In this document: positions 4,538 to 37,125 of the stretch, in pieces
Numbering within the stretch: position 1 is the stretch's first letter
Layout of the letters: the number at the start of each line of letters is the position of its first letter
Source: a virus
Virus record (IMG/VR): IMGVR_UViG_3300037246_000553
Location: 1 to 37,125 of that record
Length of the DNA: 37,125 nucleotides
Reading direction: 5' to 3' (one strand)
Notes under the pieces: generated by a model
Seen by the model: only the letters and a program-made list of their open reading frames with translations
Told to the model about the DNA's origin: nothing
Databases searched by the model: none
Program-made: the position numbers and the translations under genes

Positions 4538-4695
4538 TGAGGATCTCGTCTTCGGACTTTAAGCGATATGCCGCTCTCGCCGCCGCTATTCCCTTCGTTG
4601 GTCTCGGATGGATCTTAGGACTTATCTTCCGGATCTCCGACATGATCCGGGCCGCCGTCCGGGAAGGCTTCGAAACGGGGAGTAAAATCGAATGA
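4537..4695 (+). CDS. Small single-span membrane protein (52 aa)
   Basis: The ATG overlaps the terminase stop (TAATG) and the TGA overlaps the portal ATG (ATGA), so it is translationally coupled on both sides. Residues 11-32 (YAALAAAIPFVGLGWILGLI) form one hydrophobic segment flanked by charged residues. The protein is 52 residues long. A membrane protein between terminase and portal is seen in some phages without known role. I cannot assign a function. Confidence 0.65.
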   Translation: MRISSSDFKRYAALAAAIPFVGLGWILGLIFRISDMIRAAVREGFETGSKIE

Positions 4696-6842
4696 CCGAT
4701 CTCTTAACGAGAATAGCCGATCGAGCAAGGAAGAATTATTCTCCTCTTTACGACCAACATCCCGAGCTTGCGGAACGGATGCCGATTATGCGGGTCTACT
4801 CCGATCAGCAGGGAGCCGAAGGAGCCGTTAACTTCCCGGCGAATTCGGTCGAGTACGGCCGATCGACTTGGGTCCACAAGGCGATTAAAGTAATTGCCGA
4901 TAACGTCTCTCCTCATCCCCTCGAGGTTGTTACGGGATCCGGAGACGAGAGAGAAGTCCTCGATAATCATCCTCTCCGGGAGATTCTCGAGACGCCTAAT
5001 GATTCTATGTCTTCCTCGGATGTTTGGCGTCAGTGGACGACCGACATGATGCTCGGCGGAGAAGAGGGCTTCGAGATAGTTCGAGGGGATACGACCGACC
5101 GAATAATGGAGATATGGCCTCGTCAGCCTCACGTCTTTACAGTCAAGCCGGGGAAGGGGGGGGCTCGATATCGGAGGGTAGCGAAGTATTATATCGACGA
5201 TGGCCAAGGGGCTCCTTACTCGCTCCGTCCCGAAGAGTTCCTACACATTAAATTTTACAATCCAGTGAACGTCTGGAGGGGGATCGCTCCGATTACTGCG
5301 ATTCGAATGGGCCTCGTTATCGATCAAATGGCTCAGGCTTGGAGCCGCTACTTCTTCCGGAATTCGGCTCGTCCGGATTATGCAATTCTAACCGATGAGG
5401 GAATGACCTCTAAGGAAGCTCAGGAGCTCGAGGTCCGGCTATCGACCGATTACGGCCGGCCGGAAGGATGGCATAAACCGATTGTCCTCGATCAAGCGGT
5501 AAAGGATGTCAAGGTACTCTCCTTCGCTCCGAAGGATCTTGAATGGATCGAGCAGAGAAAGCTATCGAGAGATGAGGTCGGAGGGATCTTCGGAGTTCCC
5601 GACGAGATAATGGGCTACGGCAAGGATACTTACGAGAACTTTCCGACGGCCTTCCGGGTTATGTGGATCGTTACGATCGATCCTCTTCTACACTTCCGGG
5701 ACGTCCAGCTCACTACTTGGCTCCGACGCTACGGCTTCCTTGCTTTTAACGAGCGGATCGAGACGAACCGATCTCACATTCCGGAGCTCCCCGAAGACCT
5801 CGCCAAGAAGATCACTATGGTCGAGCAGTTATTCCGATCGTCCATCCCTATAAATGCAATTAACGACCGGCTTCACTTAGGTCTTCCGGATCTTGTGAAC
5901 GGAGACGTCGGATACGTTCCTATCGGAATGATGCCGGCGACTTCGCTCGAAGGGAGGGGGAGCCTCTCCTTCTCGGATCCCGATAACGGAGACAAGGGAG
6001 AATTGATCGAATGGTCTTACGGCCGAGGAGCTCCTCCTTACGGATCCGTACAGCACAAGGAGCTTCTGAAGAGAAGAGAAGTTCCCATGTCTCCCTTAAA
6101 GGACGAGATGAGAAGGAAGCTCCGGAAGTTCTTCCAGTCGCAACAGACGAGACTCTTGAGAGCTCTAAGAGCCTCGAGGGAACTCGGGAGAGGAAAGTTC
6201 CGGGAGGGCAAGGACGAAGATCTCCTTCCTCCTTTAAATGATATCTTCGATCTCGACGATGAGATCGCTCGCTTCGAAGAGCAGTTCGGGCCGATCATAA
6301 CGGAAGCCGTAAGGCTCTCTGGGATAACGGAGATCGAATTCCTTGGGCTCGATATTGCCTTCGACATAACTCGGCCGGAAGTTCAGGGAGAGATCGCCGG
6401 GATCCTCGGGACGGTCGCTAATAAGACCGGGAACCGGATCTGGGATGATCTTATCGATCTCTTCGAGGAAGCCGAGGCCGAGGGTGAAGGAATTATCGCT
6501 ATACAGGAACGGCTTAACGTCTTCTACGACGGAGTGAAGTCGTTCTATCAGACCGAGCGAATCGCTCGGACGACGATGGTCGGAGCTACGAACGCCGGAG
6601 CGACCGAGGCATGGGATCAATCGGGAGTAGTAAAAGGGCGAGAATGGGTCTCGGCTCTTATCCCCGGTCGAACTCGGATCGAGCATGAACTCGCTCACGG
6701 CCAGCCTCGAGGTCTCCGGGAAGCCTTCGAGGTCGGTTCCGATCTGCTAATGTATCCCGGAGATCCGAACGGATCCGTCGGGAATATAGTCAACTGCTTA
6801 TGTACCACGGCTCCGGTTCTAATGACGGAAGAGGAGGAATAA
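4692..6842 (+). CDS. Portal protein fused to a MuF-like minor head domain
   Basis: The protein is 716 residues. Residues 1 to about 430 resemble the HK97-type portal: HPLREILETPND, a central region with PEEFLHIKFYNP and RGIAPITAI, and the clip/stem region with GVPDEIMGYG and ENFPTAFRVMW. Residues about 500-716 match the Mu F-like/SPP1 gp7 fold: ERIARTTMVGATNAGATEAW, EWVSALIPGRTRIEH, LMYPGDPNGSVGNIVNCLC. Portal and MuF are usually separate genes, and I see no frameshift or stop between them. The portal ring sits at the unique vertex and the MuF domain is probably packaged inside the head. The ATG overlaps the preceding TGA. Confidence 0.88.
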   Translation: MTDLLTRIADRARKNYSPLYDQHPELAERMPIMRVYSDQQGAEGAVNFPANSVEYGRSTWVHKAIKVIADNVSPHPLEVVTGSGDEREVLDNHPLREILETPNDSMSSSDVWRQWTTDMMLGGEEGFEIVRGDTTDRIMEIWPRQPHVFTVKPGKGGARYRRVAKYYIDDGQGAPYSLRPEEFLHIKFYNPVNVWRGIAPITAIRMGLVIDQMAQAWSRYFFRNSARPDYAILTDEGMTSKEAQELEVRLSTDYGRPEGWHKPIVLDQAVKDVKVLSFAPKDLEWIEQRKLSRDEVGGIFGVPDEIMGYGKDTYENFPTAFRVMWIVTIDPLLHFRDVQLTTWLRRYGFLAFNERIETNRSHIPELPEDLAKKITMVEQLFRSSIPINAINDRLHLGLPDLVNGDVGYVPIGMMPATSLEGRGSLSFSDPDNGDKGELIEWSYGRGAPPYGSVQHKELLKRREVPMSPLKDEMRRKLRKFFQSQQTRLLRALRASRELGRGKFREGKDEDLLPPLNDIFDLDDEIARFEEQFGPIITEAVRLSGITEIEFLGLDIAFDITRPEVQGEIAGILGTVANKTGNRIWDDLIDLFEEAEAEGEGIIAIQERLNVFYDGVKSFYQTERIARTTMVGATNAGATEAWDQSGVVKGREWVSALIPGRTRIEHELAHGQPRGLREAFEVGSDLLMYPGDPNGSVGNIVNCLCTTAPVLMTEEEE

Positions 6843-6843
6843 G

Positions 6844-7830
6844 ATGAACGATCGATATAGAAAACTCCGAGCGGATCAACTCTCTCGGCTCGAGGCCGGG
6901 GAACGAGTTCGCTTCGATAAGGTTATTACGACGCTCGATCGTAAATCGGTCGACGTCGAGGACGGGATTAACGAGGTGACAATTACGAACGAAGCGACCG
7001 ATCGGGATGGCGATATCGTTCGGGCCGGTGGTGCGAATGTCGATAACTATTTGAATAATCCGATCGTTCTCTTCGGACATAACTATCGAGATCCCGAGGC
7101 CGTCGTCGCTAAGACGCTCGAGCTTAAAACTAAGAAGAAGGCGATCAGGGCTCGGTTCCAGTTCGCTCCTTGGGAGACGTCCATCGGAGCCGATACTACT
7201 CGTCGACTTTGGGATGGTGGTTTCCTCAACGCCGCTTCGATCGGGTTCATTCCGACCGAGTGGGAGGAGATTATTCCGGAAGGAGCCGATCCGAACGACT
7301 CGCCTTTTTGGGGTTGGCCTCTCGACTTCCTAGAATGGGAGCTTCTCGAATGGTCGATCGTTCCCGTTCCTGCTAATCAGGAAGCTCTCCGATCAGCGGC
7401 GATCGTTATGGGGAAGGAGTTCCCATCTCTTCGATCGAACTTCGAGGCCTTCGTTAATCTCTTAGATATAAAACCTATCACGAGGGAGCTCGAGGAAGAC
7501 GGGGTAGGATGGAAGCCCGGAGATCCTCTTCCGGGGATAAGGGGCGAGCACGTAAGAGAACGAATGAAAGAACTTATGGAGGAGGACGGGGTCGAATGGA
7601 AGAACAGAGAAGCTCCTCCGCCGGGAGTAATGCGAAGAGAAGTCGGAGCACTAATTCAACCGAAGATAATTCACTCAGAAGATCCCGGTCTCGATCCTGA
7701 GACCGTTATCGAGACGATAGCCGGAGCGGATCTAAACACTGATGATCTCACCGAAGAAGAAGAAGCCGCTCTCGCCGAATTCGCCGAACGTTTGAACGAA
7801 ACAATTAAAAGAATACGGGAGGTATTTTAA
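6844..7830 (+). CDS. Prohead maturation protease (U35-like)
   Basis: Residues 46-180 match the HK97 prohead protease. EATDRDGDIV leads to NNPIVLFGHN with H79, NAASIGF carries S132, and ELLEWSIVPVPAN carries E169, the expected catalytic set. The protein cleaves scaffold or capsid N-terminal regions during head maturation. At 328 residues it is longer than the usual 200 or so. The acidic, helical C-terminal 130 residues could be a scaffolding segment. GAGGAGGAATAAG precedes the ATG. Confidence 0.88.
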   Translation: MNDRYRKLRADQLSRLEAGERVRFDKVITTLDRKSVDVEDGINEVTITNEATDRDGDIVRAGGANVDNYLNNPIVLFGHNYRDPEAVVAKTLELKTKKKAIRARFQFAPWETSIGADTTRRLWDGGFLNAASIGFIPTEWEEIIPEGADPNDSPFWGWPLDFLEWELLEWSIVPVPANQEALRSAAIVMGKEFPSLRSNFEAFVNLLDIKPITRELEEDGVGWKPGDPLPGIRGEHVRERMKELMEEDGVEWKNREAPPPGVMRREVGALIQPKIIHSEDPGLDPETVIETIAGADLNTDDLTEEEEAALAEFAERLNETIKRIREVF

Positions 7831-9239
7831 TGCCAACAACTAAGGACATACTCGAAGAGTCGAATCAGAATCTCGCCGAGTTAAACGAGACTGTTCGATC
7901 TCACGCAGATGATCCCGTTACGGTCGACATCGATGCACTGACGCCGATCGTAATGGCGATCCTCGATATCCGGGATAGTGCTCTCGCCGATGAGCAAAGA
8001 GCGGCCGACGCTCCGGTAAGAAGGGGAGATCCCATCGGACCGGAGACGGATCCCGAGGCGATCCTCGCCGCCGTGATGCAAGGCGATTATGCTCTCGCCA
8101 AGTGGCTCAAGGCTCGGCCGACTTTCGAAGGTCGAGCACAGCATGGAAAGTTCGCTGGTCAGAAGATCTCCGATCTTCAGTTCACCAAGAACTTCCTACA
8201 GGCGGCCGCTCACCTCGATCCGCAAGGAGTACGGGCGGGACCGAGTGATGGTCTCACTAAGCTCCTCGACTCTACCGGGACCGGGACCGGAGACGAGTTC
8301 GTTCCGACCGGGATGGCGGCCGAACTCTGGGCCGATTCATTCCTCGCAAGTAAAGTCGTCGGAGCTCTCGGCGTTGTTCCGATGCCGACGGATCCGTTCG
8401 ATATGCCTCTCTCTTGGGGCGGGATCACTTGGAGGAAGGGTGGGGTCGGAGAGGCGACCGCCTCTCAAGATCCGACGACCGCTAAGTCGACCTTTACGGC
8501 GACTGAGCAGATCGCCGAGGTTAACTGGGCTTACGATCTCGATGAGGATGGAATCATCGCAGTTCTCCCGACGCTCCGATCCGAGCTCACTCGCTCGGGA
8601 TCCGAGCAGATGGATGCCTTCGCTTTGAACGCCGACGCTACGGCGACGTCGACCGGGAACATCAACCTCGACGACGACACTCCTCCGACCGATGCTTACT
8701 ATCTATCCAATGGTCAGGACGGGATCCGTCACTTTTACCTCGTCGATGTAGCGGCTCAATCGGCCAATATCTCGACGACCTTAACCGATGCTTTGTGGAG
8801 AACAGGTCTCGGAAAACTCGGGAAGTACGGAGTAAGTCCGGCCGAGATCTTGGCGATCACGAACGTTAAAACTTACCTGATTTCAATGCTCTCCTTAACG
8901 AACGTGAGGACCGTCGACAAGTACGGGCCGCAAGCCGTTATTATGACCGGGGAATTGGCAAAGATGGACGGGGTCCCGATCATCGTCTCGGAGTCGATCT
9001 TGCTCGCCGAGGATGACGGGAAGCTTTGTAAGACCTCCGGAAGTAACGACGAGGGCCAGATCGCTCTCGTTAATCGAAACGCTTGGAAGGTCGGATTTCG
9101 CCGACAGCTTCTAATTGAGATCGATCGGGATATCCGAAAGAGGATCTACATAATGGTGGTGTCCTTCCGAATCGCCGTCGCCTCTCGGGACCGGACCGGT
9201 ACTCATACAGCCGGAATTCATGGGATCACCTACGCCTAA
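7830..9239 (+). CDS. Major capsid protein (HK97 fold)
   Basis: This 469-residue protein lies directly after the protease (TAATG overlap), in the standard capsid position. The first 110 residues are helical and charged, like the HK97 delta domain removed by the protease. The core includes DEFVPTGMAAELWADSF, a long E-loop-like part with WRKGGVGEATASQDPTTAKS, and the P-domain stretch LTRSGSEQMDAFALNAD. The C-terminal end VNRNAWKVGFRRQLLIEIDR is typical of this family. It should form the icosahedral shell. No cross-linking Lys/Asn pair can be assigned by eye. Confidence 0.9.
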   Translation: MPTTKDILEESNQNLAELNETVRSHADDPVTVDIDALTPIVMAILDIRDSALADEQRAADAPVRRGDPIGPETDPEAILAAVMQGDYALAKWLKARPTFEGRAQHGKFAGQKISDLQFTKNFLQAAAHLDPQGVRAGPSDGLTKLLDSTGTGTGDEFVPTGMAAELWADSFLASKVVGALGVVPMPTDPFDMPLSWGGITWRKGGVGEATASQDPTTAKSTFTATEQIAEVNWAYDLDEDGIIAVLPTLRSELTRSGSEQMDAFALNADATATSTGNINLDDDTPPTDAYYLSNGQDGIRHFYLVDVAAQSANISTTLTDALWRTGLGKLGKYGVSPAEILAITNVKTYLISMLSLTNVRTVDKYGPQAVIMTGELAKMDGVPIIVSESILLAEDDGKLCKTSGSNDEGQIALVNRNAWKVGFRRQLLIEIDRDIRKRIYIMVVSFRIAVASRDRTGTHTAGIHGITYA

Positions 9240-9314: not shown

Positions 9315-9746
9315 ATGGTGGGTGATATGTATAACGCCGGGAAGTACGGAGCGATTGTCGCCTTTCAATTTGCGAAGGCGGACATTGTCGCCAGTCAGAC
9401 GAATGTCGATCTCGTACTCGTCGGGGGCGGGACGCTTGTAGTTCCGCCGAAGTCGGGATCCGTAGTTGGGATCTCATGTCGATCTACGGCGGCGGTTACG
9501 GCCGGGACCTTCTCGGTCCGGGCTCACAAGGATTCGTCCGAGTTCGCTCAATCGGGCTATCCTAATCCGAGTTTCGATTCGATCGCCGGGACGTCTCAAG
9601 AGAGCCATGCTTCTATCAGGCCGGGAGTTCTTGTCTTCTCGGCCGATGAGGGAGTCGGTATCAGCTATTCGAGTGATGCTACGATGGCTCCGACGAATAC
9701 GAACGATATCGACGCCGTTCTCTTCGTCCAACTGGATCCGAACTAA
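9315..9746 (+). CDS. Putative head decoration or head-fibre protein (143 aa)
   Basis: This is a short, beta-rich protein of low charge immediately after the capsid gene and before a hairpin, a location typical for head decoration proteins. It contains GGGTLVVPPKSGSVVGISC and many Ser/Thr/Gly residues, as in trimeric jelly-roll-like decoration proteins. The ATG follows GGAAGGAGTTCTACA; an in-frame ATG four codons later is an alternative start. The Ser/Thr-rich surface makes it a possible substrate of the sugar-transfer enzyme encoded next. Both the decoration role and this link are inferred. Confidence 0.55.
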   Translation: MVGDMYNAGKYGAIVAFQFAKADIVASQTNVDLVLVGGGTLVVPPKSGSVVGISCRSTAAVTAGTFSVRAHKDSSEFAQSGYPNPSFDSIAGTSQESHASIRPGVLVFSADEGVGISYSSDATMAPTNTNDIDAVLFVQLDPN

Positions 9747-9803: not shown

Positions 9804-9830
9804 TCTTAGAAGCTCAAGGAGAAGCCACCA

Positions 9831-11273
9831 ATGGTTAAGGGATCTTGGGGAAGTATTGTCGCCGGAACTCGGCTCGAGAAGATGGTCGATTCGAAGTTCG
9901 TCAGTGCTTGGAGCCACTTGATAGCGAAGGGGCTCCGTCCGGGAGATGGCTTCCTTATCTCGAGGGATCGGATCGCTCATAAGTCAGCGAATAAGCTCTT
10001 CCACGATTTCTTATTCACGGCCGAGCAGGACTCATTATTGCTTATTGATTCAGATGCCGACTTCGGTCCGGAGATCCTCGAGGAGTTCCGGACCTTAACG
10101 GACGGATGGGAATACGATATCTTTCAAGCCTTCTACACTCGTCGAGGATGGCCGCCGGAAGCGATCTGGTTTAAGGAAGACGCTCTCGGTAATTCGATGC
10201 AAGCCTTCGTCCTCGGAGAAGGAACCGAGCCTACTACGATGGTCGGATTTCACTTCACTCTAATTCGTAGGGAGGTTATCAAGAGGATATGGAAGGAGCA
10301 GGGGGAAGGGAAGATCGATCCGGACGAATTCGATTGGGCGTGGTATCCGAGACATTCGAGCTACGTCGAAGATGCGGCCTTCTGTAAAGAAGCTCAGAAG
10401 TACGGCTTCAGGATAGGATCTACGTCGGTAGTAAAGACCGGGCATAATGTCCGGGTTACAACCGGATGGGAGACTTATCTTCAATTCCTCGAGATCTCCG
10501 GACAACTCGATCGGCTCGATCGCTATAACGAGGGGATTGAGCTCGTCGCTGAGTTCCTCGGAGAGGAGCCGGGAATGGTCCGGGCTCTCTCTATGAGGGG
10601 ATCCGAGAACATAAGGAAGGGGCTCGAAGGCTATTTATTCGGGAAGGAGATCGAGAGCTTCGAAGATCTCTCGGCCGAGGATCTGAGGGAGTTTTACGGA
10701 TGGGAATCGGCGGGTTATTTCTATGACCTTCTAGGATGGAACTCCACTCCGCTCTACGACTTGAGTCTGGATCCGCTTCGAGGGATCGAGGGAGAGATAA
10801 TCCTCGTCGTCGGAGCAGGTCTCGGAGGAGAGGTCGAGGCGGCGAGGGAAAAGAACGCCGTCGTTGTCTTCGAACTTCCGGGGAAGCTCCGGGAGTTCCT
10901 CCAATGGAGGTATGAAGAGATTGACGCCGTTCAGGTCTACACTCAGCCGAGCGATCTTCGAGAGATAATCGCTCCGGAGGAAGGGCTCCGATACGGAGTA
11001 GTGGTCGCAGTAGATACGGTCGAACATTTCCATCCTGACGACTTCGAGCCGACGCTCGATAAGATGCTCGAGCTCACTAAGCCGGGAGGTCTTCTATACT
11101 TCCGGAGCAACTTCGGAGATCCAGATCTATATCCGGTCCACTTCGATCACTCCGAAGCATTCGAAAAGTGGACTGAGAAGAATGATCTTGAACTCTATGC
11201 AGGATATGAGAAGAGCGGGGTCGAGATCTATCGAAGGAGAATAGTCGATGAAGAGATTAAAAGTAATAAGTGA
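9831..11273 (+). CDS. Glycosyltransferase-methyltransferase fusion in the head module
   Basis: The N-terminal 240 residues resemble a GT-A glycosyltransferase: SLLLIDSDADFGPEIL has the metal- and sugar-nucleotide-binding D-x-D (D73, D75, D77), VEDAAFCKEAQKYGF has an acidic pair at 180-181, and TGHNVRV has H205. The C-terminal part from about residue 310 resembles a class I S-adenosylmethionine methyltransferase: EIILVVGAGLGGE, VAVDTVEHFHPDDF, LTKPGGLLYFRSN. A protein that adds a sugar and then methylates it is suggested. It sits between the decoration and connector genes, so virion proteins are the likely substrates. Some phages do glycosylate capsids and tails. The start follows CAAGGAGAAGCCACCA. 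Host surface polysaccharide is an alternative substrate. Confidence 0.72.
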   Translation: MVKGSWGSIVAGTRLEKMVDSKFVSAWSHLIAKGLRPGDGFLISRDRIAHKSANKLFHDFLFTAEQDSLLLIDSDADFGPEILEEFRTLTDGWEYDIFQAFYTRRGWPPEAIWFKEDALGNSMQAFVLGEGTEPTTMVGFHFTLIRREVIKRIWKEQGEGKIDPDEFDWAWYPRHSSYVEDAAFCKEAQKYGFRIGSTSVVKTGHNVRVTTGWETYLQFLEISGQLDRLDRYNEGIELVAEFLGEEPGMVRALSMRGSENIRKGLEGYLFGKEIESFEDLSAEDLREFYGWESAGYFYDLLGWNSTPLYDLSLDPLRGIEGEIILVVGAGLGGEVEAAREKNAVVVFELPGKLREFLQWRYEEIDAVQVYTQPSDLREIIAPEEGLRYGVVVAVDTVEHFHPDDFEPTLDKMLELTKPGGLLYFRSNFGDPDLYPVHFDHSEAFEKWTEKNDLELYAGYEKSGVEIYRRRIVDEEIKSNK

Positions 11274-11544
11274 GTATCTGAGCCGGAACGTCCATTATCT
11301 GAAGGGATCGGTTATCGAGGTCGACGAAGCTCAAGCTGAGTTCCTTATGAGAGACGCTCCGGGATGCTTCGAGATCCCCGGAAAAGGGAAGGCTCCTCGA
11401 GGACCGGCCGCTGATAAGATGATCGATGAGGGCGACGGGCTCGATAAGCTCGGGGTCCGGGAGCTCCGGAAGCGATTGAAGAAAGCCAAGTTAAAGGTAG
11501 CGGGGAGGAAGCCGGAGCTCATAAGCCGTCTCCGAGGAGGATAA
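11248..11544 (+). CDS. Small protein with C-terminal SAP-like motif (98 aa)
   Basis: It overlaps the preceding gene by 26 bases, with GGAGAATAGTCG before its ATG. The N-terminal part (VISEYLSRNVHYLKGSVIEV) matches a small beta domain often found in phage head-tail genes. The C-terminal 35 residues (LDKLGVRELRKRLKKAKL then GRKPELISRL) have the helix-turn-helix pattern of a SAP domain, a DNA-binding fold. The location suggests a minor structural or connector accessory protein. Confidence 0.6.
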   Translation: MKRLKVISEYLSRNVHYLKGSVIEVDEAQAEFLMRDAPGCFEIPGKGKAPRGPAADKMIDEGDGLDKLGVRELRKRLKKAKLKVAGRKPELISRLRGG

Positions 11545-12561
11545 ATGAGCGATCAAGTCTATTGCTCGATAGCCGAGCTCTGGGCCGATCTAGAGGTTCA
11601 AGGCTTCGAGGATGTCCCGAATACGCTCCGTAAGATCCGTTCCGCTTCAGAATGGATCCAGCGCAAGCTAGGGACCTTTATCCCGGTTACTAAGACGGTC
11701 TGGTACGACGGGAACGGAGCCGGGGATCTATTTATCGAGCCGATTCTCTCGACGCCTACGATCGTACATGATGGGAAGACGCTCGAGACTACGGACTATA
11801 TTCTCTACCCTCGAGACAAGCATTGGGAGGACGGACCGTATACGAGGCTCGGCGTCGATCCCGATTCGACCGCTCTCTCCGTCTGGAAGCGGGAAAGGGA
11901 CGTCGTCTCCGTTCTCTCTTCTCATGGGAAGTACATTAAGACGGTAGTGACAGGAGCGACGGTTCAGGACGATCCGCTTGCTTCCGGTGGGGTTACGCTT
12001 GTCGTCGATAACGGAGGGCTTGTCTCTCCGGGCGATTCGCTTCTCATCGAGACCGAGCAGATCCTTGTTCTCGATTACTCCGGATCCGGATCCGATACGA
12101 CGAAGAACTTGGCCGCCGCCGCCGCCGCTAATGACACTGTCTTAACCCTGGAATCGGGACATGCCTTAAACGCCGGCGAGATCATCCGGATCGATAACGA
12201 GATAATGGGCGTCGTTCGGACCGAGGGAGCTACTAAAGTCTACGTCGAACGCCAGTGGGCCGGGACCTTACGGGCCTCTCATTCGAATGCCGCCGACGTC
12301 TACGTCTATCGGACCTTCTCGATCGAGAGAGCGATTAACGGGACGACCGCCGCCGCTCATGTTAAGACTACTGCGATCTCGAAGTATCGAGCTCCTTATC
12401 CCGTACATTATCTCGCCGTTCAGATCGCCGCTCTAATGATTAAGAAGGCGAAGACGGGCTTCGTCGGGAAGACGATGGATATCGAGGAAGGGGCGATGTT
12501 CTATCACAATGAATTCCCGAAGTCGGTCTATAAAGAAGTTATGAACGCTTATCGATGCTAA
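11545..12561 (+). CDS. Head-tail connector (adaptor) protein with inserted beta domain
   Basis: The N-terminal 45 residues (YCSIAELWADL...RKIRSASEWIQRKLGT) and the C-terminal helix (HYLAVQIAALMIKKAKTG) fit the helical adaptor proteins, such as HK97 gp6 and SPP1 gp15, that dock under the portal. Between them lies a long beta-rich insertion with two similar segments, LVSPGDSLLIETEQILV and ALNAGEIIRIDNEIMGV, resembling a duplicated beta unit. At 338 residues it is about three times the usual adaptor length. Gene order (capsid, connector, gp10-like, tail terminator, tube) supports the call. Confidence 0.65.
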   Translation: MSDQVYCSIAELWADLEVQGFEDVPNTLRKIRSASEWIQRKLGTFIPVTKTVWYDGNGAGDLFIEPILSTPTIVHDGKTLETTDYILYPRDKHWEDGPYTRLGVDPDSTALSVWKRERDVVSVLSSHGKYIKTVVTGATVQDDPLASGGVTLVVDNGGLVSPGDSLLIETEQILVLDYSGSGSDTTKNLAAAAAANDTVLTLESGHALNAGEIIRIDNEIMGVVRTEGATKVYVERQWAGTLRASHSNAADVYVYRTFSIERAINGTTAAAHVKTTAISKYRAPYPVHYLAVQIAALMIKKAKTGFVGKTMDIEEGAMFYHNEFPKSVYKEVMNAYRC

Positions 12562-13070
12562 CCTTCGAGATTGTTCCGCCGAAGGAACTCGATCCGCTTA
12601 TGGCTCGGCTCCGGGATTACGGGAAGATCGCTAACAAGCACAATAGGAAGGCGATGAAAGGAAGCGTAATCTCGATCGAGCGGGGAGCTCGTAAGACCGC
12701 TCCTGTTGGTGTAGCGGGAAGGCTCCGGAACTCGATGGCTTCGGAGGTAAGAGAGAAGAAGGACGTCATTATCGGCCGGGTCGGATCTACAATGAAGAAG
12801 GAGATCTACCCGATCGTAATGGAGCTCGGAAGGAAAGCGGGAAAGGCTCCTCCGCCGGGAGCTCTCGATCGGTGGGTCCGGATCGTTCTCGGAGTCTCGC
12901 CGAAGAAGGTTCGATCGGTCTCCTTCCTTATCGGGCGAAGGATGAAGAGGAAGAAGATGAAAGGTCGTCGCTTCTTAACCAAGGCTTATCGCAAGGAGAG
13001 ACCGAAGATCCACAAGCGATTCGGGAAGGCTCTAAAGGACATTACGAAGGAATTGGCGCATGGTAAGTGA
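12555..13070 (+). CDS. HK97 gp10-like neck/tail-completion protein
   Basis: This is a 171-residue basic protein with the pattern of the gp10 family: VISIERGARKTAPVGVAGRL then RNSMASEV, which resembles the conserved A-P-x-x-T/G-x-L-R-x-S core. It is predicted to help join the head to the tail. The ATG overlaps the preceding stop (ATGCTAA). The C terminus is very Lys/Arg-rich, longer than usual, with MKRKKMKGRRF. Confidence 0.75.
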   Translation: MLTFEIVPPKELDPLMARLRDYGKIANKHNRKAMKGSVISIERGARKTAPVGVAGRLRNSMASEVREKKDVIIGRVGSTMKKEIYPIVMELGRKAGKAPPPGALDRWVRIVLGVSPKKVRSVSFLIGRRMKRKKMKGRRFLTKAYRKERPKIHKRFGKALKDITKELAHGK

Positions 13071-21344: not shown

Positions 21345-22226
21345 ATGCCAGAGATAAGTCTTCAACCGGCGGCCGCCGCCTCTCCCGATACTTACCTCGA
21401 TGAATCAAATCCCGGTACTTCTCGAGGAGCAGATGCGACGTCGAGATGGGGCCGGAATAACAACGCCAATAATGACGCTATGTTTAAGTTCGATCTCTCG
21501 GCGATCGCCAAGGGCTCGAAGATCTTGGAAGCGGTTCTCTCTCTCTATCTCACCGGGAATAACGGGAGTCCTACCAATACAGTTATGTGGAGGATCCTCG
21601 AGGGGAACTCTGCATGGGTCGAGGCCGCCGATTGGAATACGATCGACGGAGCGGCCGCTCCTTGGGCCGGATCCGCCGGGGCCGAGACCGTCGGGACGGA
21701 TATCGCCGCCGGCTATCTCTTCGGTCCTTCTACGATCGATTTAACCGGTCTCCCCAAGTGGGTCGATTTCATTATGAACGCTTCGGAGTTTCAGGCATTA
21801 ATCGACGTCGGAAACTACGGGTTTAAACTAGGGCTTACTACTAGGGCGGGAGGAGATTGGCTCGTCGGAATTTTCTCGAGCTCCGATCACGCTACGGCCG
21901 GCCAACATCCGAAGCTATACGTCCAATGGATCGAGCCGAGCGGGATCCTCTATGAATACCGTTTTAATAAGTACGATCCGCTGAAGCGGGTCTTCGATGC
22001 GAAGGGGGAGCAAGTACAACTAAGCGAAGTCCGGCCGAATAACTGGATCTTTACGGAGGGCTTCGACCTTCCCTCGAGCAAGGTCTTCTCCTCTCTCGTC
22101 GTCGATCCTCGGGTCAGTTATATTAAAGGGACGAGCTACGATGAGGACGGGAGATCTCTCGGGATCGAGACAGATCGGAACCAATTCGCCGCCGCTATTA
22201 TCGAGCGAATGGCAAGGGGAATCTAA
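21345..22226 (+). CDS. DNRLRE-domain tail protein with hub-like C terminus
   Basis: Residues 1-200 fit the DNRLRE domain, a beta-sandwich of surface proteins: SPDTYLDESNPGTSRGADAT, then AMFKFDLSAIAKGSKILEAV and LSLYLTGN. Residues 200-293 (LYEYRFNKYDPLKRVFDAKG, SLGIETDRNQFAAAIIERM) resemble the C-terminal end of a tail hub protein, as if the DNRLRE domain interrupted that module. The start lies two bases after the previous stop, with a short GAGGTAGGA before ATG. It likely contributes to host recognition. Confidence 0.65.
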   Translation: MPEISLQPAAAASPDTYLDESNPGTSRGADATSRWGRNNNANNDAMFKFDLSAIAKGSKILEAVLSLYLTGNNGSPTNTVMWRILEGNSAWVEAADWNTIDGAAAPWAGSAGAETVGTDIAAGYLFGPSTIDLTGLPKWVDFIMNASEFQALIDVGNYGFKLGLTTRAGGDWLVGIFSSSDHATAGQHPKLYVQWIEPSGILYEYRFNKYDPLKRVFDAKGEQVQLSEVRPNNWIFTEGFDLPSSKVFSSLVVDPRVSYIKGTSYDEDGRSLGIETDRNQFAAAIIERMARGI

Positions 22227-22456: not shown

Positions 22457-23299
22457 ATGCAGGGCTTACACTGGTGGGATTTCTCAAGGTGGAACGGAAG
22501 AATAAACGGAGCGGCGATAAAGGCTCGAGGGGTCGACGGGATAATGTCTCGATCGACGATCGGGACCTCCGGGGTCCGGGATATACAATACGAAAATAAC
22601 TCCCGCCAAGCCGACGAGAACGGGCTTCTCTTCGGAGCTTACGGAGTTAATTGGCCTATCAATCGTAATCCCGAACTTGAGGCCGAGGTCTTCGTCGAAC
22701 AAGCTTACGATCCGAGGCTCCCGAAGCTCCCGGATGTACTCGCCGGCGACTTCGAGCTCGGAGCGAGAACGCATAAGGCCGGCCATCACAAGATCTCGGG
22801 GGAGGAGCTCGTCGAGCAAGCCGTCCGATACATGCGGAAACTCAGAGAACTTCTTCCGGAGATCCTTCTCATCCTTTATACGGGGCATTGGTTCTGGAAC
22901 GACGAGAAGCTCCTCCCGCACGTGGGGAAGGGGGAAGATGAGTTCCCCGGATGGTTCGCTTCTTATCCTATCGATCCGAAGCAAATTAAATACTTGCCGC
23001 CTCGATATTCGGCCGACGTCTTAGATCCGAGGGAAGTCAATCCGGATCTCGAAGTTAAAATTCCGATACCTTGGACAAAGGCGAATACAATGGCTTGGCA
23101 GTGGTCGTCTAAGGGCAGGGGGAAGGTCGACGGCTATCAAGAGTCGACCTTTATCGATCGGAATGTTCTCTTCGCTCCGATCGGGCCGCCGCCGCCGAAC
23201 GGAGGGCCTACTCCCTCAGAGCGGATCCGGGAAGCCGGAGCTATAATCGATGAGCAGACCGCCGAGCTCGATCGAATAGCCAATGAGCTCGAGAGGTAA
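22457..23299 (+). CDS. GH25 lysozyme (endolysin)
   Basis: This 280-residue enzyme is predicted to hydrolyse the peptidoglycan N-acetylmuramic acid to N-acetylglucosamine bond. LHWWDFSRWNGRI places the first acidic residue (D8) as in GH25 proteins, and LAGDFELGA supplies D98 and E100 of the catalytic D-x-E. ILYTGHWFWN and MAWQWSSKGR are further family features. The C-terminal 35 residues are helical and charged. There is no signal peptide, so release depends on a holin. AAGGAGGAGAT precedes the ATG. It stands before the two holin candidates. Confidence 0.88.
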   Translation: MQGLHWWDFSRWNGRINGAAIKARGVDGIMSRSTIGTSGVRDIQYENNSRQADENGLLFGAYGVNWPINRNPELEAEVFVEQAYDPRLPKLPDVLAGDFELGARTHKAGHHKISGEELVEQAVRYMRKLRELLPEILLILYTGHWFWNDEKLLPHVGKGEDEFPGWFASYPIDPKQIKYLPPRYSADVLDPREVNPDLEVKIPIPWTKANTMAWQWSSKGRGKVDGYQESTFIDRNVLFAPIGPPPPNGGPTPSERIREAGAIIDEQTAELDRIANELER

Positions 23300-35473: not shown

Positions 35474-35617
35474 ATGTTTCAAAAAGGACAAAGCTTTCTC
35501 GAATATGCGTTAATCTTGATTCTTGTGGCAGTCATTGTAGTCGTCATTCTGACTCTACTCGGACCAGAGCTCGTTAGGATCTTTAGTCAGATCGCTGAGA
35601 GCGTTCAAGGCTTCTAA
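35474..35617 (+). CDS. Flp/type IVb pilin-like protein (47 aa)
   Basis: The protein starts MFQKGQSFLEYALILILVAV. A five-residue leader ends in Gly, and mature numbering gives E5 and Y6 (GQSFLEY), the Flp pilin prepilin-peptidase signature. A 22-residue hydrophobic helix follows, ending LTLLGPELVRIFSQI. Length (47) and the short tail match Flp pilins of Tad systems, many of which have the GxxxxEYxLIxxLxA pattern. GTAGGAGGATAAC precedes ATG. It is the last gene before the terminator at 35664. No prepilin peptidase, ATPase or secretin is encoded, so host machinery would be needed. Confidence 0.82.
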   Translation: MFQKGQSFLEYALILILVAVIVVVILTLLGPELVRIFSQIAESVQGF

Positions 35618-35663
35618 CTCGGATCTTAGTTCGCATAGCCACTACTTACAACCGAACGAATAA

Positions 35664-35706
35664 GGAGCTCCGGATCTCGACAGGTTCGGAGCTCCCGTCT
35701 TTTTTA
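35664..35706 (+). terminator. Rho-independent terminator after pilin gene (right copy)
   Basis: The stem is the same as at 89-120, here followed by CGTCTTTTTTA, a canonical U-tract. It lies 47 bases after the pilin stop codon. The copies differ only after the stem, so this may be the functional form and the left copy a variant or a read error. Confidence 0.85.
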
Positions 35707-35947
35707 TTACTCTCTCTTCCGCTCTTCCCGGCCGTCGATCGGGATCCCCGAGCGGCCGAATCAGGCGAAGGACCCGGCTCCGCCGGCCGGAATAGGGGAG
35801 CCTGTAAATCGAGGGTACTCACTTACCATAAATACGCTCAAAGTCGCTTAGATCGACGCTGTGGCAGTCTCGTCCGACGTCCCACTGCAGTGGATTACCG
35901 CTTCCCGGTATGACGGTATAACGGGGAGTGTAAAAATGGGATCCCGA

Positions 35948-35976
35948 TTGACCAGTCTCAAAAATGAGACTAGGAT
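35948..35976 (+). promoter_or_regulatory. Late promoter and operator, right copy
   Basis: This is the exact repeat of the promoter at 373-401, with the palindromic operator at 35955-35970. In a circular or permuted genome the two are the same site. Confidence 0.65.
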
Positions 35977-36092
35977 AAGGAGGAGCTCCTCCTCCAGTGG
36001 AGCTCGGGAGACGCCGAGACGGGAACGCCGCCGGCGTCTTCTACTTTGAAAGGGAGCCGAGATATGATAGGATCGAGAACGGAGGAGGAGCG

Positions 36093-37125
36093 ATGGCAAA
36101 GAAAGCCGAACGACTTCGGATCGATTACTTACCTCTTACGGATCTCCTCACTCGCAAGTCTCCGGATAACGCTAAACTTCACGATCTAATTCAGATGGCC
36201 TACTCCTTCGGGAAGTTCGGCTTCGTCGCTCCGGCTGGGATCGATGAGACGACCGGGCTTCTCCTCTGGGGGCACGGCAGGCTCGACGAGCTCTACGAGC
36301 TCAAGGAGAGCGGAGCGAAGCCTCCCGGACGGATCGAGATTGAGGGAGACGAGTGGCTCGTCCCGACGGTCCGGGGGATCCGGCTCGGGAAGAAGCTCGG
36401 ACCGCTTTACAGGATGGCCGATAATGCGATCGGCGAAGGTCTCTGGGATAAGGACAAGCTCGCTCAGACGATTATCGCCGCCGTCGGAGATCAACTCGAG
36501 GAGCTTCAAGGGACCGGGATCGAACCGGATTACGCTTCCGCATTAATCGAGGCCTATCAAAAGAATGGGAAGGAAGACAAGCCGCCGCCGAATACCGAAG
36601 ACGTTAAGCGTCTCCGTCGAAAGTGGAAGACGAAGCTCGGCGACTTTTACGATATCGGATCTCATCGGCTTATCGTCGGAGACGCTACGGACGGAGAGAT
36701 AGTTACGAGGCTCTTCGCTGGCGAGAAGGCTTCCGCTGTTCTTACGGATCCGCCTTACGGAATGATGAAGGACGGGATCCTGAATGACGATCCCCGAGGG
36801 CTCTCCTTGCTATACGGAGAGGCGATCGCTAACCTTCCGATGGATAAGGGGGTCGTCGTCGCCTTCCAGTCGCCGAGGCTCAATCTCCTTACGATCTGGC
36901 TCGATCGAATGACAGAGAACAAGTACAAGCTTGAGCGACTTCTCTGGGTCTACTTTACGAATACGACGAACTCGTTCCCTTGGCGAGGATGGATCCTTAC
37001 GGGACAGGCGATCGTTATCTCATCGAAGGGACGTCCTCGATGGCCAAGGAAGAAGCTCGACTATCAGCACGATACCTATACTCGGATCGGGAAGGAGGAC
37101 GAGGAGCTCGACGGGAAACATCCGA
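36093..37125 (+). CDS. ParB-methyltransferase, partial right copy cut by the window end
   Basis: This is the first 344 codons of the gene at 518-1768, repeated because of the terminal redundancy. It includes the ParB-like domain and TDPPYG. It stops before the DPFLGSGTT motif because the sequence ends, not because the gene is broken. Confidence 0.9.
   Translation, partial: MAKKAERLRIDYLPLTDLLTRKSPDNAKLHDLIQMAYSFGKFGFVAPAGIDETTGLLLWGHGRLDELYELKESGAKPPGRIEIEGDEWLVPTVRGIRLGKKLGPLYRMADNAIGEGLWDKDKLAQTIIAAVGDQLEELQGTGIEPDYASALIEAYQKNGKEDKPPPNTEDVKRLRRKWKTKLGDFYDIGSHRLIVGDATDGEIVTRLFAGEKASAVLTDPPYGMMKDGILNDDPRGLSLLYGEAIANLPMDKGVVVAFQSPRLNLLTIWLDRMTENKYKLERLLWVYFTNTTNSFPWRGWILTGQAIVISSKGRPRWPRKKLDYQHDTYTRIGKEDEELDGKHP

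What the first reader, a model, noticed from the sequence alone, without database searches (positions are those of the whole stretch)
9831..11273. Glycosyltransferase-methyltransferase fusion inside the head module
A GT-A-like domain with a D-x-D motif fused to a class I methyltransferase is encoded between the decoration and connector genes. Sugar addition followed by methyl capping of virion proteins would give the capsid a modified glycan coat. Capsid glycosylation is known in some phages, but a single bifunctional enzyme in this place is unusual.
Basis: partly seen in the sequence, partly recalled or inferred. Interest (0 to 1): 0.75.

Follow-up and report, generated by a model that had tools for sequence, protein, structure and literature searches.

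The report
Sugar-and-methyl enzyme in phage head genes
An uncultured tailed phage carries, among its head-building genes, one protein that joins a sugar-attaching enzyme to a methyl-attaching enzyme; it probably puts a methylated sugar on a small shell protein encoded next door, a variant of capsid glycosylation already known in some other viruses.

Summary
ORF 9831-11273 (480 aa) joins an N-terminal GT-A glycosyltransferase domain to a C-terminal class I SAM methyltransferase. An AlphaFold2 model (mean pLDDT 91.6) matches STIV A197, a viral GT-A enzyme, at Z 19.4 over aa 7-218, and class I methyltransferases at Z about 16 over aa 255-471. All aligned relatives keep D-S-D and a later His; an acidic ED/DE pair lies between. 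In 80 viral contigs found through the capsid protein (plus the window), 32 carry this GT in the same slot between a small MCP-adjacent protein ('dec') and the connector genes; at least 27 are fused to the methyltransferase, two stand alone. Eight others have a different GT-like gene there, one with a separate methyltransferase. Presence of the GT follows the dec tree (2 changes), not the capsid (8-10), protease (12) or downstream-gene (11) trees, making dec the leading acceptor; no activity is shown. GT-plus-methyltransferase sets, fused (Che8 gp108) or inside head modules (YungJamal, Courthouse), are already annotated in mycobacteriophages, and capsid glycosylation is reported for Che8 and Corndog. 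Chlorovirus A064R is a proven capsid-glycan GT/methyltransferase fusion. This is a new variant of a known kind.

The parts
9831..11273 (+). GT-methyltransferase fusion ORF, 480 aa (P0001)
   Evidence: relatives; start preceded by AAGGAG 9816-9821
9846..10496 (+). GT-A domain, aa 6-222
   Evidence: phrog_1574, GT2-type Pfam hits in relatives, STIV A197 Z 19.4 rmsd 2.5 over 173 residues
10047..10055 (+). D73-S74-D75, the DxD motif
   Evidence: invariant in 27 of 27 aligned relatives
10368..10373 (+). E180-D181, xED-type acidic pair (putative catalytic base)
   Evidence: ED in 23 and DE in 4 of 27 relatives
10443..10445 (+). H205, invariant late His of the GT-A domain
   Evidence: 27 of 27
10497..10703 (+). 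helical linker, aa about 223-291
   Evidence: secondary structure of the model
10704..11195 (+). class I SAM methyltransferase domain, aa about 292-455
   Evidence: Pfam Methyltransf_23/12/25; Z about 16 to class I methyltransferases
10803..10832 (+). SAM motif I, LVVGAGLGGE (aa 325-334)
   Evidence: L325, G328, G330, G332, E334 invariant in the 10 aligned domains
10872..10874 (+). E348, acidic residue after strand 2 (FELPG), putative SAM ribose contact
   Evidence: invariant in the 10 aligned domains; role inferred from class I fold
9315..9746 (+). small MCP-adjacent protein 'dec', 143 aa; favoured acceptor
   Evidence: GT presence follows its tree (2 changes) and not the MCP, protease or SAP trees
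7830..9239 (+). probable major capsid protein; alternative acceptor
   Evidence: phrog_1623 virion structural protein; position after protease
6844..7830 (+). prohead protease
   Evidence: PF04586 Peptidase_S78, 6.7e-7
4692..6842 (+). portal protein with a Mu F-like C-terminal part
   Evidence: PF04860, 2.3e-49; phrog_2662
11248..11544 (+). small SAP-domain protein, overlaps the end of the fusion ORF by 26 bases
   Evidence: PF02037, 1.3e-6
11545..12561 (+). neck/connector-region protein
   Evidence: conserved position in relatives
12555..13070 (+). HK97-gp10-like, tail completion or Neck1 protein
   Evidence: PF04883; phrog_5

Best explanation
The gene makes a two-step virion-glycosylation enzyme. 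Step 1 (inferred from fold and motifs): the GT-A domain, with D73-S74-D75 holding a metal and a host-made nucleotide sugar and the E180-D181 pair acting as or near the base, transfers one sugar to a virion protein in the cytoplasm during head assembly. Step 2 (inferred): the C-terminal class I methyltransferase, held close by the helical linker, O-methylates that sugar and so caps it. The most likely acceptor is the small protein encoded just upstream (9315-9746), which probably sits on the outside of the head; the major capsid protein is the second candidate. The fold, the motifs, the fusion, its conserved place and its co-inheritance with the small protein are shown by computation. Donor, acceptor, linkage, methyl position and benefit are not shown.
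For: GT-A fold: best match STIV A197 (2c0n), Z 19.4, rmsd 2.5, 173 residues. GT-type Pfam and PHROG hits in relatives. Invariant DSD and His, ED/DE in 27 of 27. Methyltransferase domain. Fixed place: in MCP-anchored contigs the GT lies between the small protein and the SAP/neck genes. Purifying selection. Co-inheritance: GT against other on the dec tree 2 changes, MCP tree 10 (at least 5 forced by starred branches), shuffled mean 16.2; on common subsets SAP tree 11, protease tree 12, MCP 8, dec 2. Distances GT-dec r 0.83-0.84 against MCP-dec 0.52-0.60. Pairing of GT and methyltransferase recurs unfused: L043 has a GT-like gene followed by a Methyltransf_24 gene in the same slot. Precedents: Che8 and Corndog capsid glycosylation by phage GTs (PMC12363180), with GT plus O-methyltransferase genes in Che8 and relatives; STIV A197 is essential and the STIV capsid protein is glycosylated (PMC10551542); chlorovirus A064R (PMC9614988). 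Nucleotide-sugar genes of the families PF00483 and PF01370 were not found in the phage, so a host donor is expected.
Against: No biochemical or mass data exist for this phage or its relatives. The window protein itself has no Pfam GT hit, only phrog_1574 of unknown function, and its methyltransferase score is just under the Pfam cut-off. phrog_1574-like genes also occur away from head genes (cyanophage S-TIM5), so place is not a fixed property of the GT family. Co-inheritance with dec could be simple cassette exchange of two adjacent genes; within the first subfamily alone the GT-dec distance correlation is only 0.52, against 0.67 for GT-MCP. The dec-like protein has no assigned function. The methyltransferase target could be a protein side chain rather than the sugar. 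Active-site geometry was not measured on coordinates.
Confidence: 0.6

Rival explanations
1. Same chemistry, but the acceptor is the major capsid protein (as at the capsid C-termini of mycobacteriophages), and the small protein only travels with the enzyme because the two genes are adjacent and exchanged together.
For: Glycans on capsid and tail tube C-termini reported for mycobacteriophages (cited in PMC12619734); dec and the fusion gene are 84 bases apart.
Against: The MCP is inherited independently of the GT: 8-10 changes on its tree against 2 on the dec tree. The gene adjacent on the other side (SAP) does not track the GT either (11 changes), so adjacency alone does not give tracking; but SAP is short and its tree weak.
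Confidence: 0.22
2. The enzyme modifies the phage or host DNA: the GT glycosylates a modified base and the methyltransferase acts on base or sugar.
For: Phage GTs that hypermodify DNA are known (reference 46 cited in PMC12619734); the genome has a ParB-DNA methyltransferase gene at 422-1768.
Against: No thymidylate synthase/hydroxymethylase homologue in a near-complete genome (controls ring); the gene is always within the head genes in the relatives examined. The Tet_JBP search is uninformative because no control rang.
Confidence: 0.06
3. The enzyme changes a host surface glycan (receptor masking or serotype conversion) rather than a virion part.
For: Phage GTs with such roles are known (cited in PMC12619734); phrog_12406 is filed under moron/host takeover genes.
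Against: The model is a soluble two-domain protein without a membrane part; head-gene location; co-inheritance with a head-region protein.
Confidence: 0.07
4. The methyltransferase domain is not a sugar-capping enzyme: it methylates a side chain of the same virion protein, or has lost catalysis and serves as a binding module.
For: Its closest solved folds are small-molecule and protein N- and O-methyltransferases of many kinds; two relatives lack the domain altogether (L013, L042).
Against: SAM motif I and the acidic ribose residue are invariant and selection is purifying, dN/dS 0.09-0.16; the characterised or annotated parallels pair GTs with sugar O-methyltransferases or TylF-type enzymes.
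Confidence: 0.15

Closest known systems
Mycobacteriophage virion-glycosylation genes (Che8 gp108-gp110; Corndog-type gp36-gp39; Courthouse gp15-gp17)
   Same: Phage-encoded GTs paired with an O-methyltransferase, fused in Che8 gp108; in YungJamal and Courthouse the set lies inside the head module; capsid glycosylation is reported for Che8 and Corndog (PMC12363180).
   Different: The enzymes are not detectably homologous: GT profile against Che8 gp108 E 0.53 and methyltransferase profile against the TylF-type enzymes E about 0.6-1.7. Those sets have two or three GTs; this one usually has one. Che8's set is at the genome's right end.
Chlorovirus PBCV-1 A064R
   Same: One polypeptide with a GT-A DxD domain at the N-terminus and a class I methyltransferase at the C-terminus that builds and caps the capsid glycan (PMC9614988).
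   Different: A064R has a second GT domain, acts on an existing N-glycan of an algal virus, and is unrelated in gene context.
STIV A197 (PDB 2c0n)
   Same: Best fold match of the GT domain (Z 19.4); viral GT-A enzyme with DxD and Asp base, thought to glycosylate the capsid protein (PMC10551542, PMC4187194).
   Different: Single domain, archaeal virus with an unrelated capsid; no methyltransferase.
phrog_1574 proteins (vir323 gp11, MW202711 GT, S-TIM5 gp211)
   Same: Detectably homologous GT domain (E 1.8e-16 to 2e-10); in MW202711 and vir323 the gene lies between the capsid-region and tail genes.
   Different: Stand-alone, no methyltransferase; in the cyanophage the gene is not with head genes.

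Membership tests
GT-A fold glycosyltransferase | GT-A fold | tested here: met
   Model aa 7-218 to STIV A197 Z 19.4, rmsd 2.5, 173 residues; LH3 GT domain Z about 16
GT-A fold glycosyltransferase | DxD metal/nucleotide-sugar motif | tested here: met
   D73-S74-D75, 27 of 27
GT-A fold glycosyltransferase | xED catalytic-base region and late His | tested here: met
   E180-D181 as ED in 23 and DE in 4 of 27, H205 in 27 of 27; geometry not measured
GT-A fold glycosyltransferase | transfer of a sugar from a nucleotide donor | not testable with these tools
   needs an enzyme assay
Glycosyltransferase family 2 (PF00535) | match to the family profile | tested here: inconclusive
   7 of 22 relatives match, best 2.2e-5; the window protein does not
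phrog_1574 | match to the family profile | tested here: met
   E 2.3e-9, aa 64-210; 16 of 22 relatives
Class I SAM-dependent methyltransferase | fold | tested here: met
   aa 255-471, Z about 16 to many class I enzymes
Class I SAM-dependent methyltransferase | glycine-rich SAM motif I and acidic residue after strand 2 | tested here: met
   GAGLGGE and E348; G328, G330, G332, E334, E348 invariant in 10 domains
Class I SAM-dependent methyltransferase | acts on a sugar hydroxyl | not testable with these tools
   needs an assay
Mycobacteriophage-type virion glycosylation set | GT plus O-methyltransferase encoded by the phage, in or near the head module | tested here: met
   this window and relatives compared
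Mycobacteriophage-type virion glycosylation set | homologous enzymes (gp108/gp109/gp110 types, TylF methyltransferase) | tested here: not met
   no significant profile match
Mycobacteriophage-type virion glycosylation set | glycosylated capsid or tail protein | not testable with these tools
   no virions available
Chlorovirus A064R type | GT, GT, methyltransferase in one chain | tested here: not met
   only one GT domain and one methyltransferase domain in 480 aa

The most novel reading that the evidence does not exclude
In this uncultured phage lineage the small MCP-adjacent protein and the enzyme slot behind it form one exchangeable 'coat' cassette. The small protein is the glycan carrier. 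The slot is swapped between a GT-methyltransferase fusion, a GT alone, a second GT-like family (with or without a separate methyltransferase), both in tandem, or nothing, independently of the capsid protein, so that phages change a methylated glycan coat without changing the head shell.
Probability: 0.4. Interest if true: 0.68.

Novelty: new variant of a known kind. Interest (0 to 1): 0.5.

Why it matters
Phage virion glycosylation has been shown for only a few phages, mostly of mycobacteria. Here a different pair of enzyme families does apparently the same job in one chain, within the head genes of an uncultured lineage. Comparison of about 50 loci names a specific likely acceptor (the 143-aa protein) that can be tested with two genes in E. 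coli. If right, it would give a simple protein glycosylation and methyl-capping tool, and show that phages exchange surface coats as cassettes.

Tried and rejected
Search for relatives in 50,697 phage records with the whole protein: none at 1e-3; in GTDB genome contigs: none; L013's stand-alone GT domain was needed to reach annotated phages. First AlphaFold2 run on a two-sequence alignment was poor (pLDDT 49.3) and was not used. Sequence profile of the GT domain against PDB chains: no match up to E 10, so the A197 link rests on fold only. The second GT-like family (GTB) has no Pfam match, no PHROG match apart from one weak hit, no meaningful PDB match and no phage-record match; its GT-A assignment rests on a profile-profile match (probability 82.8, aligning DSD with HSD, ED with ED, His with His) and is tentative. 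The small 'dec' protein has no significant match in Pfam, PHROGs or PDB. DNA hypermodification was looked for and not supported (uninformative). Corndog's own record was not held under the accessions tried, so YungJamal, filed as the same species, was used. The primary papers on mycobacteriophage glycosylation and on A197 were not held; their results are quoted from papers that cite them. The frequencies among MCP-anchored contigs are not population rates, because the capsid profile was seeded from GT-bearing loci.

Full report
What is there. The window is an IMG/VR virus record. ORF 9831-11273 on the + strand encodes 480 aa. Its left part matches phrog_1574 (E 2.3e-9) and its right part Pfam methyltransferase models (PF13489, E 5.2e-6). 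Upstream are terminase, portal (PF04860, 2.3e-49), prohead protease (PF04586), a probable major capsid protein and a 143-aa protein. Downstream are a small SAP-domain protein, a neck-region protein and an HK97-gp10-like protein. So the enzyme does lie within the head genes. The label 'decoration protein' for the 143-aa neighbour is positional only.

Fold. A first model from two sequences was poor. With 22 relatives (alignment A5) the model reached mean pLDDT 91.6, pTM 0.86. Compared with solved structures, aa 7-218 match STIV A197, a viral GT-A glycosyltransferase, at Z 19.4, rmsd 2.5 over 173 residues; next come the GT domains of lysyl hydroxylase LH3 (Z about 16). Residues 255-471 match many class I SAM methyltransferases at Z 15-16. 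Among predicted viral proteins there are GT-A proteins of uncultured tailed phages, the Che8 glycosyltransferase Q855A2 and a Catovirus GT-methyltransferase protein.

Motifs. In 27 aligned GT domains D73-S74-D75 and H205 are invariant, and position 180-181 is ED in 23 and DE in 4. STIV A197 has a DxD motif and an Asp base, D151, and its D151E mutant replicates with delay (PMC4187194, PMC10551542). That our D181 is the counterpart is my inference from the aligned range, not a measured superposition. The methyltransferase keeps G328, G330, G332, E334 and E348 in all ten domains compared. Close pairs show dN/dS of 0.06-0.16 over both domains.

Relatives and place. Four scans of viral contigs gave 21 further loci with the enzyme at 38-53% identity, all with the same neighbours wherever the contig reaches. 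L013 carries the GT domain alone in the same place. An independent set was then drawn by the capsid protein (80 loci) and scored with profiles (numbers include the window). 27 have the fusion, 2 the GT alone (L042 and L048, the latter the same contig as L013), and 3 the GT with the contig ending too early. 8 have a different GT-like family ('GTB') in the slot, 23 have no GT there and 18 cannot be judged. L043 has GTB followed by a separate Methyltransf_24 gene (PF13578, 2.8e-17) in the same slot. L010 has GTB and the fusion in tandem, and L061 has both, with GTB behind the SAP-like gene. GTB is linked to the GT family only by a profile-profile match that aligns the acidic motifs and the His (probability 82.8), so it is tentative. 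Of 8 whole records without the fusion, 7 have no match to the GT profile anywhere and one has only a weak partial match (E 1.1e-4).

Which neighbour goes with it. On 52 loci with MCP, dec and a judged slot, presence of the GT needs 10 changes on the MCP tree (at least 5 forced by well-supported branches; shuffled mean 16.2) but 2 on the dec tree. On common subsets the counts are: dec 2, MCP 8, protease 12, SAP 11. GT and dec distances correlate at 0.83-0.84, MCP and dec at 0.52-0.60, over all loci; within the first subfamily alone GT-dec falls to 0.52 and GT-MCP is 0.67, so the coupling is mainly between dec types. All 32 GT loci have one dec type; GTB and most empty slots have another, although their capsid proteins are as alike as within the GT group. 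This points to the dec-like protein as the enzyme's partner. Exchange of the two adjacent genes as one cassette would give the same pattern, but the other adjacent gene (SAP, with a short and weak tree) shows no tracking.

How it probably works. The model shows a soluble two-domain protein, encoded with the head genes. NTP-transferase and epimerase families for nucleotide sugars were not found in the phage, so a host sugar nucleotide is the likely donor. The GT domain would glycosylate a head protein, most likely the dec-like protein, and the tethered methyltransferase would O-methylate the sugar. The fold and co-inheritance are computed results; donor, acceptor, bond and methyl position are inferred.

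What is known. Chlorovirus A064R (GT, GT, methyltransferase in one chain) builds and O-methylates the end of the capsid glycan (PMC9614988). Mycobacteriophages Che8 and Corndog glycosylate capsid proteins with their own GTs, Che8 gp110 and Corndog gp38 being called essential for it (PMC12363180); glycans at capsid and tail-tube C-termini are cited in PMC12619734. I find that Che8 gp108, two genes before gp110, is itself a Glycos_transf_2 plus Methyltransf_24/TylF protein, annotated as glycosyltransferase/methyltransferase in two related phages. In YungJamal (same species as Corndog) the order is portal, O-methyltransferase, gp37, GT, GT, protease, capsid, and in Courthouse capsid, TylF methyltransferase, GT, GT. 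None of those enzymes is detectably homologous to this one. The finding is therefore a new variant of a known kind.

Rivals. DNA modification is disfavoured by place and by absence of a thymidylate-synthase homologue (the Tet/JBP search had no ringing control). Host-surface modification is disfavoured by the head-gene location and co-inheritance. The capsid protein as acceptor remains open. A protein-methylating or inactive second domain cannot be excluded, though selection and motifs argue against inactivity.

Verdict. Observation confirmed; interpretation plausible and partly supported; not as unusual as thought, but with a new and testable pointer to the acceptor.

Noticed in passing
1-1548 and 35576-37123: The two ends are 99.7% identical in direct orientation over 1548 bases, so the record, classed as linear without end repeats, is probably a near-complete genome of about 35.6 kb; the ORF at 35997-37124 is the same ParB-DNA methyltransferase as at 422-1768.
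   Followed up: partly
L106-L147, L149-L153: Relatives of the capsid protein (32-44% identity) lie in 47 Chloroflexota (Dehalococcoidia, SAR202) genome contigs, some in megabase-long chromosome contigs, with a similar protease and neck order but none of the GT genes; prophages or domesticated elements, and a hint at the host phylum.
   Followed up: partly
L010:2853-5082, L061:4940-7404: Both the second GT-like family and the GT-methyltransferase fusion are present (in tandem in L010), as if for a longer glycan.
   Followed up: no
L050:1951-4172, L051:1690-2772, L055, L058, L088, L148: Lipoprotein-like or secreted-looking repeat ORFs sit between the capsid gene and the dec/SAP genes; L050 also has an HslV-like peptidase (phrog_1040, 5e-23) and a 194-aa protein of unknown kind there.
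   Followed up: no
L015:4620-5042, L017:3199-3738, L021:11201-11626, L072:7912-8355, L084:8072-8680: Weaker second matches to the GT profile further downstream, towards the tail genes.
   Followed up: no
L041:4256-5106, L044:5381-6204: The dec-like gene is present as two tandem diverged copies.
   Followed up: no
21345-22226: Tail-region ORF with a carbohydrate-binding module CBM96 hit (1.4e-6), followed after a small ORF by a GH25 endolysin at 22457-23299.
   Followed up: no
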